From: Planctomycetia bacterium
GTDB lineage: Bacteria > Planctomycetota > Planctomycetia > Pirellulales > JALHLM01
Assembly (NCBI GenBank): GCA_034440135.1
Contig: JAWXBP010000072.1
Span: 1-64,000 of the forward strand
Reading direction: 5' to 3'
DNA: 64,000 bases
Shown here: positions 7,940-13,269 of the stretch, one piece after another
Layout of the letters: the number at the start of each line of letters is the position of its first letter
Position numbering within the stretch: the stretch's first letter is position 1
Notes under the pieces: model-generated
What the model saw: only the letters and a program-made list of their open reading frames with translations
The model's database searches: none
Told to the model about the DNA's origin: nothing
Translations under genes and position numbers: made by a program

Positions 7940-8393
7940 CAGGCACTCCGATCGAAAAACGGTCAGGGCGGGCGCGAAAAAACGACGGAACAGTCAGGTA
8001 GGCGTTCAGGCGGGTGGGAGAAGTTGTCGCCCGGCGACAATCGTTCGTCTCTCGGCAGCTGTTCCGCAAACTCAGCCAAGGGACGCCGACGGGCGAAATC
8101 TCCTCCAGGTAGCCCTGACGGTAACCGTGATATCAACGAAAGTCAATGCAATGCCCCCTCTGGAGGGTTGTTCGGCGGGCCGCGGCCGTTAAGCAATAAG
8201 CCCAGGGAAGGCCTCGGAGACTTCTCTATCACCAACGACATCGGTGGCCTTCCCTGGGCTTGGCGAAATCGGTGTCAATTCCAAGGTTCCCCCACGAACT
8301 CGACTTAACGCCGGCTGACGGACATAATCGAAGGGCGTGGCGTCGAGATCCGCTCAGCCGCGTGTTTTGATCCTCACGATGGATGAACGCGTG
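7940..8393. other. Gene-free divergent intergenic region
   Basis: The stretch separates the divergent PPC-domain and DUF1549/DUF1553 genes, so promoters for both should lie here, though I could not pick convincing boxes. It contains a short palindrome at 8024-8040 (TTGTCGCC-C-GGCGACAA), a possible operator, and the dispersed CCCAGGGAAGGCC repeat at 8198-8261. No credible coding frame was seen. Confidence 0.6.
8198..8261. repeat. Dispersed palindromic repeat, AAGCCCAGGGAAGGCC family, copy 1
   Basis: The arms AAGCCCAGGGAAGGCC (8198-8213) and its exact complement (8246-8261) flank a 32-base loop. A second copy with the identical 16-base arms but an unrelated loop lies at 36666-36730. Conserved arms with free loops point to selection or spread of the palindrome itself. 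Confidence 0.9.
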
Positions 8394-10613
8394 ATGCGAA
8401 AACTGCAGACTGGCGCAGTGTTCTGTTGGGTGTTACTCGGCGCTGGGTGCGCGCCAGTAATGGCCTGGGCAGCCGACGAGATCGATCGCGCCGCGCTGGA
8501 ACAGGCGTTCACCGGCGACATCGCCCCAATTCTGGAACGGCACTGCGCGGATTGCCACAACGCCGACGCCCCGGAACACGAGTTGGACCTCTCCAGCCTG
8601 GCCGGCGCGTTGAAAGGAGGCGTCTCCGGGCCGGCCGTCGCTCCGGGCCGCGCCGCCGAGAGTATGGTGCATCGCTTCGTCCAGCTGGACGGCGACCCGC
8701 ACATGCCGCCCGAAGGACAATTGAATGCGACCGAAATCGCCACGCTCGCCAAATGGATCGACAGCCTGCCGGCGTCGCTCGCCTCGGCGGAAAAAAAAAT
8801 CCGCGATGAAGATCGCGCTCATTGGTCCTATCTGCCCGTCGTGCGTCACGAGCCGCCCAGCGTTTCCAACCCCGACTGGGTGCGCAATGCGATCGACGCC
8901 TTCGTCTTGGCCGGTTTGGACCAAGCCGAACTAAGCCCGTCGCCGGAAGCGACGAAGTTAGCCCTCGTTCGCCGCGCCACGTTCGACTTGATCGGCCTGC
9001 CGCCGACGCCGGAGGAAGTGCAATCATTCCTAGCGGATGAATCGCCGGACGCCTACGAAAAACTGATCGATCGACTCCTGGCGAGCGAGCACTACGGCGA
9101 ACGTTGGGGTCGGCACTGGCTGGATGTCGCGCGGTACGCCGACTCGGACGGCTTCGAGTTCGATATGGACCGGCCGCAGGCGTACAAGTATCGCGACTAC
9201 GTGATTCGCTCCTTCAACGAAGACAAGCCCTACGATCGGTTCATCGAAGAACAGATCGCCGGCGATGAAATCGCGCCGGGCAATCAAGACGCGCTCATCG
9301 CTACGGCGTTCCTGCGAAACGGGCCGACGATCGACAACCAGAAGAACGAAAAGATTCGCCTCGACGAGTTGGACGACGTCGTCTCGACAACGAGCGCCGT
9401 CGTCATGGGGCTGACCGTCGGTTGCGCTCGCTGCCACGACCATAAGTACGACGCCATCCCGCAGCGCGACTATTACCGCATGCTGGCCGTGTTCAACAGC
9501 ATGGAACGGGAGATGGTCGACGACGTGATGTGCGTTCAGGATATCGGCCGCAACCCGCGCGAGACGCACGTGTTGTTGCGCGGCGAGCCGCACATGAAAG
9601 GCGACGTCGTCGAGCCAGGCGTGTTGAGCGTGCTGGAAACGCTGCCGGTGCAATTCCCCGAATCGCCGGAACACGCCGCTTCGACGGGTCGACGCGCAAC
9701 ATTGGCGCATTGGCTTGCGCGGCCGGAGAACCCACTCACCGCGCGGGTGATGGCCAACCGCATCTGGCACTATCACTTCGGCCAAGGGCTGGTCCGCACG
9801 CCCAGCGACTATGGCGTGCGTGGCGAGCGCCCCACGCATCCGGAGTTACTTGATTGGCTGGCTAGCGAGTTCGTCGCCGGCGGCTGGCGCATGAAGCCGC
9901 TGCATCGGCAGATCATGCTCTCGAGCACGTATCGCCAGGCCTCCGTGCAGGACGTGGAAAAGTCCAAGCACGATCCGCAGAACGTTTGGTTGTGGCGCTT
10001 CCCGCTCAAGCGCAACGAAGCCGAGGTGATTCGCGACACGATTCTCTCCGTTGCGGGCACGCTCAACACGCAAATGTTCGGCCCCGGCGTCCATCCGCGG
10101 ATCGACCCGAGCGTCATCGCCACGGGCTCGACGAGCAAATGGCCCGTCGTGGAAAAAGAAGGCCCCGAGCAATGGCGCCGCAGCGTGTACGTGTTCGTCA
10201 AACGCTCGGTGCTGGTGCCCATGCTCGAAGGCTTTGACGCCCCGAACGCGACCACGACCTGCGACCGTCGCTTAGTGACGACGGTGCCGACGCAGTCGCT
10301 GCAACTGATGAACAACGTCTTCGGTAACGACCAGGCGCTCTTGATGGCCCAGCGGCTGCGCCGCGAGGCCGGCGCGGAACTGCCAGCCCAAATCGACCGC
10401 GCCTACTGGCTCGCCTTCCAACGCCCCGTGACAGACGGGCAACGGGCCGCGGCCGTGGAATTCGTTCAAGCCGAGACCGAGCAGCACGTAGCTAGGCTAA
10501 AGGACGACGCCTCGGTTTACGAAGCCGACCGCGCGAACGTCGCGGCGGAACGAGCGCTGGCGGACTTTTGCCATGTGCTGCTCAATGCGAATGAGTTTGT
10601 GTATGTGGAGTAG
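8394..10613 (+). CDS. PSCyt1-DUF1549-DUF1553 planctomycete cytochrome protein
   Basis: The 739-aa product has a signal peptide (1-27), a planctomycete cytochrome c domain with heme motif CADCH (RHCADCHNADAPEHELDL) and DPHMPPEGQL, then DUF1549 (starting HWSYLPV; WGRHWLDVARYADSDGFEFD; second heme motif CARCHDHKYDAIPQRDYYRM) and DUF1553 (PLTARVMANRIWHYHFGQGLVRTPSDYG to the LLNANEFVYVE end). It is shorter than many relatives, with little sequence between the DUF1549 and DUF1553 parts. The ATG at 8394 directly precedes the signal peptide; ATG 8379 and GTG 8337 are in-frame alternatives. Such genes usually sit next to a DUF1501 gene, which here follows after a two-gene interruption. Confidence 0.88.
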   Translation: MRKLQTGAVFCWVLLGAGCAPVMAWAADEIDRAALEQAFTGDIAPILERHCADCHNADAPEHELDLSSLAGALKGGVSGPAVAPGRAAESMVHRFVQLDGDPHMPPEGQLNATEIATLAKWIDSLPASLASAEKKIRDEDRAHWSYLPVVRHEPPSVSNPDWVRNAIDAFVLAGLDQAELSPSPEATKLALVRRATFDLIGLPPTPEEVQSFLADESPDAYEKLIDRLLASEHYGERWGRHWLDVARYADSDGFEFDMDRPQAYKYRDYVIRSFNEDKPYDRFIEEQIAGDEIAPGNQDALIATAFLRNGPTIDNQKNEKIRLDELDDVVSTTSAVVMGLTVGCARCHDHKYDAIPQRDYYRMLAVFNSMEREMVDDVMCVQDIGRNPRETHVLLRGEPHMKGDVVEPGVLSVLETLPVQFPESPEHAASTGRRATLAHWLARPENPLTARVMANRIWHYHFGQGLVRTPSDYGVRGERPTHPELLDWLASEFVAGGWRMKPLHRQIMLSSTYRQASVQDVEKSKHDPQNVWLWRFPLKRNEAEVIRDTILSVAGTLNTQMFGPGVHPRIDPSVIATGSTSKWPVVEKEGPEQWRRSVYVFVKRSVLVPMLEGFDAPNATTTCDRRLVTTVPTQSLQLMNNVFGNDQALLMAQRLRREAGAELPAQIDRAYWLAFQRPVTDGQRAAAVEFVQAETEQHVARLKDDASVYEADRANVAAERALADFCHVLLNANEFVYVE

Positions 10614-10616
10614 CAA

Positions 10617-10958
10617 GTGGCCGAACAGGTTATGTTTCATTACACCGACGAGGCTGGTTTCAAGGCTATCTCGTCACAGATCGCCTGGACTTTCTTGGCC
10701 GGGCAGCCGCCGGGAGGGCGACCGATTGGCGCTTACTTTACTACGAAAAATCCGCAGTTTCCACGACTATTCAAGTTGGCCATACCGCGGTGGAAACGGG
10801 CGTACGTATTCGCTTTTGCCGACGTGAGTGATCTCAAGGGATTAAGTGGCGGACGCGGTGAGTACGTTTTTTATTCTCCAACCGACTACACTGTAGATGT
10901 GACGCGTCAACGATTTTGTGGGAGGGTCGAACTATGGAAATCGGCGGAACCGACGTGA
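10617..10958 (+). CDS. HYD1-like ADP-ribosyltransferase domain protein (small stand-alone)
   Basis: The 113-aa product looks like a single HYD1-signature ADP-ribosyltransferase domain, a fold known from bacterial polymorphic toxins. Visible landmarks are the N-terminal HYT (FHYTDEAGFKAI, H8), the GAYFTT motif (Y40) and the C-terminal GGRGEYVFYSPTDYTVD segment (Asp 90/94), which would be the H, Y and D of the signature. There is no signal peptide or toxin-delivery domain. The GTG at 10617 is chosen because GGAG lies 6 bases upstream, overlapping the end of the preceding gene; ATG 10632 is possible. The next gene overlaps by 25 bases. The family call is from motif recognition; toxicity or a target is not shown. 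Confidence 0.6.
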   Translation: MAEQVMFHYTDEAGFKAISSQIAWTFLAGQPPGGRPIGAYFTTKNPQFPRLFKLAIPRWKRAYVFAFADVSDLKGLSGGRGEYVFYSPTDYTVDVTRQRFCGRVELWKSAEPT

Positions 10959-11347
10959 TCTTTGCCGTTCCAGCGGAATTGGACGCCTTGTCCATAACCG
11001 TTGAGCGCTCAGTGGCTCTTTGGCCGCAGTGCGTGGTCGTGGACGACGCAGATGGATTCATGCACCGCGGACAACACTTTCATTTAATGATGCGGCGAGA
11101 TCGTGAAGAGCATCTTATCTTCCGCGACGTCAATGCTAAGACTTCCTGGGAAGATGAAGGCTGCACGGAAAGCAATGCTGCTGACATGCTGCAATTCATC
11201 TCACGCCCCGTAGCAGGTGACGCCGCACTACAAGAAGTCACTCTCGTCTACTTCAGCAATCGAGAGGCAATCCGCGAGTTGGTGGAAAACATCCGAGCAA
11301 ATCTAACGTCGCAGCCCCAATCGCCGTCAATGCGAACACGCACGTAG
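10934..11347 (+). CDS. Hypothetical protein, candidate partner/immunity protein of the HYD1-like gene
   Basis: I do not recognise the family of this 137-aa product. It is cytoplasmic by appearance (no signal peptide or membrane segment), moderately acidic, with an N-terminal beta-rich part (MEIGGTDVIFAVPAELDAL) and a helical end (NREAIRELVENIRANL). The strong ribosome binding site GGGAGGG lies inside the upstream gene and the two genes overlap by 25 bases in different frames, which points to translational coupling and matched production. That arrangement is usual for toxin/immunity or toxin/antitoxin pairs, but function is inferred only from position. Confidence 0.55.
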   Translation: MEIGGTDVIFAVPAELDALSITVERSVALWPQCVVVDDADGFMHRGQHFHLMMRRDREEHLIFRDVNAKTSWEDEGCTESNAADMLQFISRPVAGDAALQEVTLVYFSNREAIRELVENIRANLTSQPQSPSMRTRT

Positions 11348-11361
11348 AACAAATCGCCACA

Positions 11362-11411
11362 GTCGCCTTTCGCTCCGCGAAAGGGCGCTCTTTCGCGGAG
11401 CGAAAGGCGAC
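11362..11411. repeat. Perfect 22-bp palindrome with 6-base loop
   Basis: The arms at 11362-11383 and 11390-11411 are exact complements (GTCGCCTTTCGCTCCGCGAAAG and its reverse), with loop GGCGCT. There is no T-tract after it, so it is not a standard intrinsic terminator. It lies between the partner gene of the HYD1-like pair and the DUF1501 gene. Confidence 0.9.
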
Positions 11412-11455
11412 CATGACGAGCGACTACTCAAACGCAACGCAATTCCAGCATTTTC

Positions 11456-12925
11456 ATGTCAAACAATCAATCCAACTCCCAACGCTGCAACTGGGGCCAA
11501 TGGCCCACGATCTGGAACCGGCGCAAATTCCTGCAAACCACCGGCGGCGGCTTTGCCTCGCTGGGCTTGCAATATTTGCTCGGTCGAGAGGGCAAGCTCG
11601 CGGCCGATGACCGCGCAGCGCTCAATCCCCTCGCGCCGCGGCCGCCGCATCATGCGCCGAAGGCGAAGAGCGTGATCTTTCTTTTTCTTTACGGCGGGCC
11701 GAGCCAGGTCGATACGTTCGATCCCAAGCCGGAACTCGAAACCTGGCACGGGCAGCCAATCCCGGTCTTCAAGGCCGAGGACGCCTTCTTCGGTGACACC
11801 AAGCCGACCGCGTTCAAAACGCCGTACACGTTCGCCAAGTATGGCGAGTCTGGCCTGACCGTCTCGAACATGTTTCCCGAGATCGCCAAGTGCGCCGACG
11901 ATTTGTGCGTGATCCGTTCGATGTACTGCGAATCGAACAACCATGCCCCGGCGCTCTTCCAGATGAACACCGGGTTCCTGATTCCCGGGCGGCCCTCGAT
12001 GGGTTCCTGGGTTACGTATGGGCTCGGCGCGGAGACCGATCGCCTGCCGGCGTTCGTCGTGATGTGGGATCATCGTGGCGGTCCGATCGGCGGCGCGCAG
12101 AATTGGTCGTCCGGCTTCCTGCCAGCCGCGTACCAGGCCACGCCGCTCCGGAGCCAGGGCGATCCGATCGTCGATCTCAAACCGCCGAGCAACATCTCGC
12201 CGGAACAACAGCTTGCGCGATTGAAGCTGCTCGCGAAGCTCAATGAAGAACATCTCGCTGAACATCCCGGCGAATTGGATTTGGCGGCGCGGATCGCCAG
12301 CTACGAGTTGGCGTATCGAATGCAAATGGCCGCGCCGGAAGTGATCGACATCGAGCAAGAGACCGCGGAAACGCACCAGCTTTACGGCATCGACCAGCCG
12401 GTCAGCTCGTATTTCGGCAAGCAATGCCTGATGGCCCGGCGAATGGTCGAGCAAGGCGTGCGGTTCATCCAGCTTTACTCCGGCGGCGGGCATCAACAAG
12501 AAAGCTGGGACGCCCACTTCGGCATCAAGGAGAACATGGACCTGCATTGCCCGGAGATCGACCGGCCCATCTACGGGCTGCTCACGGATCTCAAACAGCG
12601 CGGGCTACTCGATGAGACGCTCGTCATCTGGGGCGGCGAGTTCGGTCGCATGCCGACGAACCAAGGCTCGGTGGGCCGGGACCACAACCCGCGCGGCTTC
12701 ACGATGTGGCTGGCCGGCGGCGGCGTGAAAGGCGGCATGACCTACGGCGCCACGGACGAATTCGGCTACGCGGCCGTCGAAAACCGCGTCTCATTGCCGG
12801 ACCTGCACGCGACGTGCCTGCACCTGCTGGGCCTCGATCATCTCCGCCTCACCTACCGCCACATGAGCCGCGACATGCGTTTGACGGATGTGAGCGGGAC
12901 GGTATTGCATGAGTTGCTGGCGTAG
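11456..12925 (+). CDS. DUF1501 domain protein with Tat-type signal
   Basis: The 489-aa product has an N-terminal Tat motif (NRRKFLQTTGGG, near residues 22-33), then the DUF1501 domain, related to the alkaline-phosphatase/sulfatase fold: VIFLFLYGGPSQVDTFDPKP near the start, the HAPALFQMNTG segment, SYFGKQCLMARRMVEQGVRFIQLYSGGG in the middle, and LVIWGGEFGRMPTNQGS...GRDHNPRGFTMWLAGGGVKGG near the end. DUF1501 genes normally pair with DUF1549/DUF1553 genes in planctomycetes, as here. Export of a folded, perhaps metal-containing protein by Tat is implied. The substrate is unknown. Confidence 0.88.
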   Translation: MSNNQSNSQRCNWGQWPTIWNRRKFLQTTGGGFASLGLQYLLGREGKLAADDRAALNPLAPRPPHHAPKAKSVIFLFLYGGPSQVDTFDPKPELETWHGQPIPVFKAEDAFFGDTKPTAFKTPYTFAKYGESGLTVSNMFPEIAKCADDLCVIRSMYCESNNHAPALFQMNTGFLIPGRPSMGSWVTYGLGAETDRLPAFVVMWDHRGGPIGGAQNWSSGFLPAAYQATPLRSQGDPIVDLKPPSNISPEQQLARLKLLAKLNEEHLAEHPGELDLAARIASYELAYRMQMAAPEVIDIEQETAETHQLYGIDQPVSSYFGKQCLMARRMVEQGVRFIQLYSGGGHQQESWDAHFGIKENMDLHCPEIDRPIYGLLTDLKQRGLLDETLVIWGGEFGRMPTNQGSVGRDHNPRGFTMWLAGGGVKGGMTYGATDEFGYAAVENRVSLPDLHATCLHLLGLDHLRLTYRHMSRDMRLTDVSGTVLHELLA

Positions 12926-12927
12926 TC

Positions 12928-13269
12928 ATGACTAAACCATTTCTTAAAGGCGCAATTCCTGCGTTGGCGGAGGAATTGCGAACTCTGCTTGTCGAGGAAG
13001 GAGAACCCGAACTCGCGGAGCAGGTGCCGCAGCTACAGATTGTTGACCGTTGCAGGTGCGGGTGTACTTCTTGCGCGACGATCTATACTGTGCTTCGTCC
13101 GACAAATGGTTGGAAAGAGCCGCACCGGAACGTCATGCTCTCTTGTTGCACGGGATATCTCATCCTCGATGTTGTGGAAGGAAACATTGTGTGCATCGAA
13201 GTGCTCGACAGGGATGACTATCGTCGGAAGCTGGATGAGGTGCTACCCTTAGCAGCCTCGTCTTCTTGA
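12928..13269 (+). CDS. Small hypothetical protein with CxCxxC cluster
   Basis: The 113-aa product begins two bases after the DUF1501 stop codon, so it is probably translated with it. It carries a cysteine cluster RCRCGCTSCATIYT (near residues 47-60) and a further CC pair (MLSCCTGYLILDVVEGN), which could bind a metal. No signal peptide is seen. I do not recognise a named family. The composition (AT-richer than its neighbours in part) and the unrelated function suggest a recent neighbour rather than a partner of DUF1501. Confidence 0.6.
   Translation: MTKPFLKGAIPALAEELRTLLVEEGEPELAEQVPQLQIVDRCRCGCTSCATIYTVLRPTNGWKEPHRNVMLSCCTGYLILDVVEGNIVCIEVLDRDDYRRKLDEVLPLAASSS

What the first reader, a model, noticed from the sequence alone, without database searches (positions are those of the whole stretch)
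10617..11347. HYD1-like ADP-ribosyltransferase with overlapping partner gene inserted into a DUF1549/DUF1553-DUF1501 unit
A single 113-residue ADP-ribosyltransferase-like domain without any delivery domain, followed by an overlapping small gene with its own strong ribosome binding site inside the first, splits a gene pair that is normally adjacent in planctomycetes. HYD1 domains are known mostly as C-terminal toxin domains of polymorphic toxins. A free-standing pair could be a toxin-antitoxin or abortive-infection module, or a relic of a toxin cassette; the partner family appears undescribed to me.
Basis: partly seen in the sequence, partly recalled or inferred. Interest (0 to 1): 0.65.

Follow-up and report, generated by a model that had tools for sequence, protein, structure and literature searches.

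The report
Free-standing ADP-ribosylating toxin with antidote gene
A small two-gene cassette, foreign by its base composition, sits between two planctomycete genes and most likely encodes a poison enzyme of the HYD1 ADP-ribosyltransferase family with its antidote; related pairs occur as tips of E. coli Rhs weapons, so the kind is known but this free-standing form, its antidote family and a usual third gene appear undescribed.

Summary
Window 10617-10958 encodes a 113-aa HYD1-type ADP-ribosyltransferase (ART). It is followed, with a 25-bp overlap, by a 137-aa partner (P2) with its own strong ribosome binding site. The pair fills an 843-bp gap in a DUF1549/1553-DUF1501 unit whose genes are nearly contiguous in relatives; its GC3 is 0.56-0.58 against about 0.80 in the flanks.

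The ART match to Pfam PF15633 is sub-threshold alone, but three things secure it: 40% identity to E. coli Rhs tips that pass the cutoff, conserved H/Y/D residues, and a fold model whose confident matches are ART-fold proteins. All 16 related planctomycete loci carry P2 (or a remnant) next to the ART. P2 is linked, through an intermediate, to the gene following the HYD1 tip in E. coli Rhs loci. In five loci the ART is broken while P2 is intact; the reverse was never seen. Nine of 16 loci carry a third gene (P3) that this genome lacks.

Best reading: a laterally acquired toxin-immunity cassette; the ART poisons the cytoplasm, P2 neutralises it. Free-standing (YarT-YbiA) and Rhs-borne HYD1 toxins are known; this antidote family and three-gene form appear undescribed. 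Toxicity and neutralisation are inferred, not shown.

The parts
8337..10613 (+). Upstream gene: PSCyt1 + DUF1549 + DUF1553 planctomycete protein, the left half of the split unit
   Evidence: Pfam
10607..10610 (+). GGAG ribosome-binding-site-like motif for the ART gene, inside the last codons of the DUF1553 gene
   Evidence: sequence; start codon 6 nt downstream
10617..10958 (+). P1: HYD1-type ADP-ribosyltransferase, 113 aa (GTG start; alternative ATG at 10632). Predicted active-site residues H8 (10638-10640), Y40 (10734-10736), D90 (10884-10886)
   Evidence: PF15633 weak; hhalign to E. coli Rhs HYD1 tip E=3e-24; Foldseek to ART-fold proteins; residues conserved
10920..10926 (+). GGGAGGG ribosome binding site of P2, inside the ART gene
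   Evidence: sequence
10934..11347 (+). P2: predicted immunity/antitoxin protein, 137 aa, overlapping the ART gene by 25 bp
   Evidence: conserved neighbour of the ART; distant homology to the gene after the E. coli Rhs HYD1 tip via an intermediate; AF2 pLDDT 87, KA1-like fold
11354..11419 (.). Near-perfect palindrome directly after P2, a dispersed repeat of this genome (about 60 copies)
11456..12925 (+). Downstream gene: DUF1501 protein, the right half of the split unit
   Evidence: Pfam

Best explanation
A laterally acquired, free-standing toxin-immunity cassette. P1 is a minimal ADP-ribosyltransferase of the HYD1 (H-Y-D/E) clade that would use NAD+ to modify an essential cytoplasmic target, by analogy with relatives nucleic acid or the translation machinery. 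P2, translated from inside the P1 gene so that antidote is made wherever toxin is made, is the cognate immunity protein and blocks P1, most likely by binding it. The pair is the same toxin plus downstream-gene unit that sits at the end of E. coli Rhs genes, here without any delivery part. It therefore works as a TA-like addiction pair, or as an immunity cassette whose toxin is later lost. Shown by sequence: ART homology, conserved pairing, distant homology of P2 to the Rhs partner, foreign composition, preferential loss of the ART. Inferred: toxicity, neutralisation, target, mode of inhibition.
For: ART identity: PF15633 is the Pfam family that every scanned intact ART matches, sub-threshold; the E. 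coli Rhs tip scores 38 bits against a cutoff of 25 and aligns over 104 columns to the family profile, E=3e-24, 40% identical to the window protein. The AF2 model (pLDDT 78) has four PDB matches with probability 0.96 or more: CC0527 (two entries), Agrobacterium 6b and Tpt1; Tpt1 and, from my own knowledge, the other two are ART-fold. H8, Y40 and D90 are kept in all intact copies and in E. coli. Pairing: in 392 phylum genomes the ART and P2 profiles hit the same three genomes side by side, with no P2 elsewhere; in an ART-only scan of 189 genomes all five new loci have P2 or a remnant next to the ART. P2: an intermediate in genome G447 aligns to the E. coli partner (27% over 154 aa) and to the P2 profile (probability 89, E=2e-6). 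Decay: ART broken in 7 of 16 loci with P2 intact in 5 of those; ART intact with P2 broken in none. Composition: GC3 0.56-0.58 against about 0.80.
Against: No experiment. Window P1 alone does not reach the PF15633 cutoff. The link from P2 to the E. coli partner rests on one intermediate; directly it is weak (probability 16). ART and P2 distances do not correlate across nine pairs (r=-0.22), so co-evolution is not demonstrated. Five against zero discordant loci is suggestive only (one-sided sign test about 0.03), and some frameshifts in MAGs could be sequencing errors. The role of P3 is unexplained.
Confidence: 0.78

Rival explanations
1. The locus is kept for immunity alone: P2 (with P3 elsewhere) protects against HYD1 toxins delivered by neighbours, and the ART is a passenger on its way to loss. 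(This shares the toxin-immunity biochemistry of the best explanation and differs in what is selected.)
For: ART broken in 7 of 16 loci with P2 open in 5 of those 7, and P3 open in two of them; G692 keeps an open ART but has lost parts of its conserved motifs (HYT to HCT, GGRG to SGQG).
Against: The ART in this window is intact with all conserved residues, as in seven other loci; an unselected toxin should have decayed more widely.
Confidence: 0.35
2. P1 is a small cargo effector of the type VI secretion system, delivered to competitors, with P2 as self-immunity.
For: This genome has T6SS sheath genes (VipB, E=1e-137) and Rhs-repeat genes; G757 also has VipB.
Against: VipB was not found in four other genomes with an intact ART (G060, G258, G357; G764, which is only 74% complete), nor in G692 or G333. 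No T6SS gene was seen beside the loci.
Confidence: 0.08
3. An abortive-infection or anti-phage module, in which the ART is released from P2 on infection.
For: ART toxins of another family (DarTG) act in phage defence according to the literature (PMC11125620); a third gene P3 could be a sensor.
Against: No PADLOC match, no homologue found in viral contigs, no defence genes recognised near the loci.
Confidence: 0.12
4. A storage cassette for Rhs-type toxins: an orphan tip that recombines onto full-length polymorphic toxins.
For: Standalone toxin cassettes are part of the published polymorphic-toxin model (PMC3482391); the homologous pair is an Rhs tip in E. coli.
Against: No other HYD1 copy in this genome although Rhs genes exist; no Rhs core remnant recognised upstream of any planctomycete copy; the ART starts at its first motif with no linker.
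Confidence: 0.15

Closest known systems
Tox-ART-HYD1 (PF15633), Rhs C-terminal toxin domains of E. coli and others (Zhang et al. 2012, PMC3482391)
   Same: Homologous ART domain, same H/Y/D positions, downstream partner gene overlapping the toxin gene; partners distantly homologous through an intermediate
   Different: Here no Rhs core, PAAR or other delivery domain; window protein below the Pfam cutoff; third gene in many relatives; the 2012 survey lists no planctomycetes for HYD1 and names another immunity family (Imm-My6CBD)
YarT-YbiA toxin-antitoxin pair of myxobacteria (Chondromyces crocatus; PMC11125620)
   Same: Free-standing HYD1-clade ART of 114 aa with an adjacent antidote gene
   Different: The antidote there is a NADAR hydrolase encoded upstream; here it is an unrelated-looking downstream protein. 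In planctomycete G447 a NADAR gene does lie upstream of an ART remnant plus P2
Tre23-Tri23 (Photorhabdus Rhs1; PMC8636562)
   Same: According to PMC11125620 Tre23 structurally resembles the HYD1-clade toxin YarT; toxin plus immunity gene
   Different: Delivered by an Rhs/T6SS; modifies 23S rRNA; not compared by sequence here
DarT-DarG / DarT1-NADAR
   Same: Free-standing ART toxin with antidote gene
   Different: Different ART family; antidotes are ADP-ribose hydrolases, which P2 does not resemble

Membership tests
Tox-ART-HYD1 (PF15633) | Profile match above the curated cutoff | tested here: not met
   13 bits against 25 for the window protein; best planctomycete member E=0.0014. Met by the homologous E. 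coli domain (38 bits). I therefore call it HYD1-type by homology, not a Pfam-threshold member
Tox-ART-HYD1 (PF15633) | Homology to accepted members over the whole domain | tested here: met
   hhalign E=3e-24 over 104 columns; BLASTP 40% identity
Tox-ART-HYD1 (PF15633) | H, [FY], [DE] active-site residues | tested here: met
   H8, Y40, D90 conserved in intact planctomycete copies and in E. coli; their catalytic role is inferred
Tox-ART-HYD1 (PF15633) | ART fold | tested here: met
   AF2 pLDDT 78; PDB matches with probability 0.96 or more are ART-fold proteins, but E-values only 0.02-0.05
Polymorphic toxin (Rhs and others) | Toxin domain at the C-terminus of a protein with delivery domains | tested here: not met
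   ORF starts at the ART domain; no delivery domain here or in relatives
Polymorphic toxin (Rhs and others) | Immunity gene directly downstream | tested here: met
   P2 or a remnant directly downstream at all 16 loci; immunity function itself not tested
Protein toxin-antitoxin module | Toxin arrests growth, antidote protein neutralises it | not testable with these tools
   needs expression in a laboratory strain
YarT-YbiA | ART paired with a NADAR/YbiA antidote | tested here: not met
   no NADAR beside the window pair; P2 has no Pfam match. Present only upstream of the degraded G447 copy
Imm-My6CBD immunity family | Homology to the myosin VI cargo-binding-domain-like family | tested here: inconclusive
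   no credible Pfam match of P2 members; best fold matches are KA1 domains

The most novel reading that the evidence does not exclude
A three-gene planctomycete conflict system (ART, P2, P3), laterally spread, in which P3 is a regulator, sensor or second immunity factor of unknown fold and the ART acts inside its own cell (for instance in phage defence or island maintenance), with a tendency to settle beside DUF1549/1553-DUF1501 units.
Probability: 0.15. Interest if true: 0.7.

Novelty: new variant of a known kind. Interest (0 to 1): 0.45.

Why it matters
It extends HYD1 ADP-ribosyltransferase toxins to free-standing cassettes in planctomycetes and identifies an immunity-type protein family, unmodelled in Pfam, NCBIfam, PADLOC and PHROGs, that links them to the partner gene of E. 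coli Rhs HYD1 tips. The repeated loss of the ART with retention of P2 makes a testable case of how weapon genes turn into pure immunity genes, and P3 is a new gene to explain.

Tried and rejected
NCBIfam, PADLOC and PHROGs: nothing meaningful for P1, P2 or P3. Sequence search of the PDB with all three profiles: nothing credible. Viral contigs with the P1 and P3 profiles: none; the P2 profile was too divergent to scan. Phage records with the window ART: none. Viral fold library with the ART model: only marginal matches, mostly unnamed phage and giant-virus proteins. Mirror-tree test of ART against P2: no correlation. P2 and P3 are not related to each other. Promoter and terminator scans around the locus: no more than in shuffles. 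Short direct repeats at the insert ends (10 nt, 10582 and 11327) are no stronger than other chance repeats in the region, so no target-site duplication is claimed. That P2 is Imm-My6CBD was considered because the 2012 survey pairs that family with HYD1, but no match supports it. General T6SS delivery was considered and mostly rejected.

Full report
What is there. The ART gene starts 3 bp after the stop of a PSCyt1/DUF1549/DUF1553 gene and uses a GGAG inside that gene; P2 starts inside the ART gene behind GGGAGGG (10920-10926) with a 25-bp overlap. The DUF1501 gene follows at 11456. In six of nine fetched relative regions the DUF1553 and DUF1501 genes are both present and lie 1 to about 120 bp apart; here 843 bp separate them. 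These relatives are about 55-59% identical paralogues or orthologues, so they show the usual arrangement rather than the exact empty site. GC3 of the two small genes is 0.56-0.58 against 0.79-0.81 in the flanking genes. The same depression is seen in other hosts (G764: 0.49-0.56 against 0.78-0.79; L022: 0.51-0.55 against 0.69-0.72). The pair is foreign to its surroundings.

The ART. Pfam gives only a sub-threshold match to Tox-ART-HYD1 (13 bits against a cutoff of 25), but that is the one family matched by every intact planctomycete homologue scanned. A translated search of plasmids led to an 8.8-kb Shigella record and from there to E. coli chromosomes (45 of 5426 genomes), where the homologue is the C-terminal tip of an Rhs protein behind VgrG, annotated by NCBI as a HYD1 ART in some genomes. 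That tip passes the Pfam cutoff (E=2.5e-9) and aligns with the planctomycete profile at E=3e-24 and with the window protein at 40% identity. H8, Y40 and D90, the presumed H-Y-D residues, are conserved throughout the intact copies and in E. coli. An AlphaFold2 model from five sequences (pLDDT 78, pTM 0.71) matches only four PDB entries with probability 0.96 or more: CC0527 (two entries), Agrobacterium protein 6b and the RNA 2'-phosphotransferase Tpt1. Their E-values are modest (0.02-0.05), but Tpt1 is an ART-fold enzyme and, from my own knowledge, the other two are regarded as ART-like.

The partner and the third gene. Sixteen planctomycete loci were examined (and their follow-ups). P2 or a remnant lies next to the ART in every one. 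In a 392-genome phylum sample the ART profile and the P2 profile hit the same three genomes, side by side; 389 have neither. Because the P2 profile was built from ART neighbours, and includes two of these genomes, the informative parts are that no P2 was found without an ART, and that a separate ART-only search of 189 genomes gave five new loci, each with P2 or a remnant next to the ART. In nine loci a third gene, P3, follows P2, mostly with overlapping stop and start; in the 392 genomes P3 was found in two, both with ART-P2, and not in this genome. P2, at about 27% mean identity, is much more divergent than the ART at 48%.

Link to Rhs immunity. P2 and the E. coli partner (WP_023155272.1) resemble each other only at the N-terminus when compared directly (probability 16). 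A P2-like protein in genome G447 bridges them: 27% identity over 154 residues to the E. coli protein and probability 89, E=2e-6 to the P2 profile. So the pair, not only the ART, appears to be shared between planctomycete free-standing cassettes and E. coli Rhs tips. The P2 model is confident (pLDDT 87) and most like KA1 domains, with no sign of an ADP-ribose hydrolase; hence I favour inhibition by binding over reversal. That step is inference.

Decay pattern. The ART is broken by frameshift, stop or deletion in seven loci (G035, G023, G333, G710, G447, L026, L027) and damaged in its motifs in G692. P2 is open in five of the seven (G023, G333, G447, L026, L027) and a remnant in two (G035, G710). 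No locus has an intact ART and a broken P2. This asymmetry is what is expected if the ART is harmful and P2 protective. It is small (5 against 0), and errors in MAG assemblies may add some frameshifts.

Mechanism. Shown: homology, pairing, composition, decay. Inferred: P1 poisons the cell from inside using NAD+; P2 neutralises it. Relatives suggest the kind of target: Tre23 modifies 23S rRNA (PMC8636562) and the free-standing HYD1-clade toxin YarT is countered by the guanine-ADP-ribose hydrolase YbiA (PMC11125620). In G447 a NADAR/YbiA gene (PF08719, E=2.5e-40) lies just upstream of an ART remnant and P2, which recalls the YarT-YbiA order. General T6SS delivery is unlikely: the sheath gene is present here and in G757 but was not found in G060, G258, G357 or G764 (74% complete), which also carry intact ARTs.

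Novelty. Free-standing HYD1 ARTs with an antidote (YarT-YbiA) and Rhs-borne HYD1 toxins with associated immunity genes are both published. Apparently new here are the planctomycete free-standing cassettes, the P2 family and its link to the Rhs partner, the P3 gene, and the frequent loss of the toxin half. I rate it a new variant of a known kind.

Noticed in passing
window 11354-11419: Near-perfect palindrome (arms of 33 nt) directly after P2; its 20-nt core has 59 forward and 62 reverse matches in this genome and none for the reversed control: a REP-like dispersed repeat.
   Followed up: partly
L064 7140-10950; L014 930-5235 and beyond; window 8337-12925: Three of the 16 ART loci lie beside a DUF1549/1553-DUF1501 unit (after the unit in G764 and G035, inside it here); whether this is more than chance, given that many genomes hold 10-30 DUF1501 genes, was not tested.
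   Followed up: no
L062 15002-16345 (genome G447): NADAR/YbiA gene, an 82-aa ORF, the C-terminal half of an ART and an intact P2-like gene in a row.
   Followed up: partly
L023 1874-2542; L026 4464-5168: P2 with a C-terminal extension of about 80-90 aa (motif FPGWTxDELACHPHEAQ) and no separate P3 gene seen.
   Followed up: no
L023 and L063: In both genomes the cassette lies between genes that look like citrate synthase and seryl-tRNA synthetase (judged by eye), suggesting a shared older insertion.
   Followed up: no
L029 and L030 5065-10900: The Rhs tip, its partner and a XerC gene of the E. coli chromosomal locus also make up much of an 8.8-kb Shigella record filed as a plasmid; it may be an excised chromosomal island.
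   Followed up: no
window 12928-13269: 113-aa ORF directly after DUF1501 without any Pfam match.
   Followed up: no
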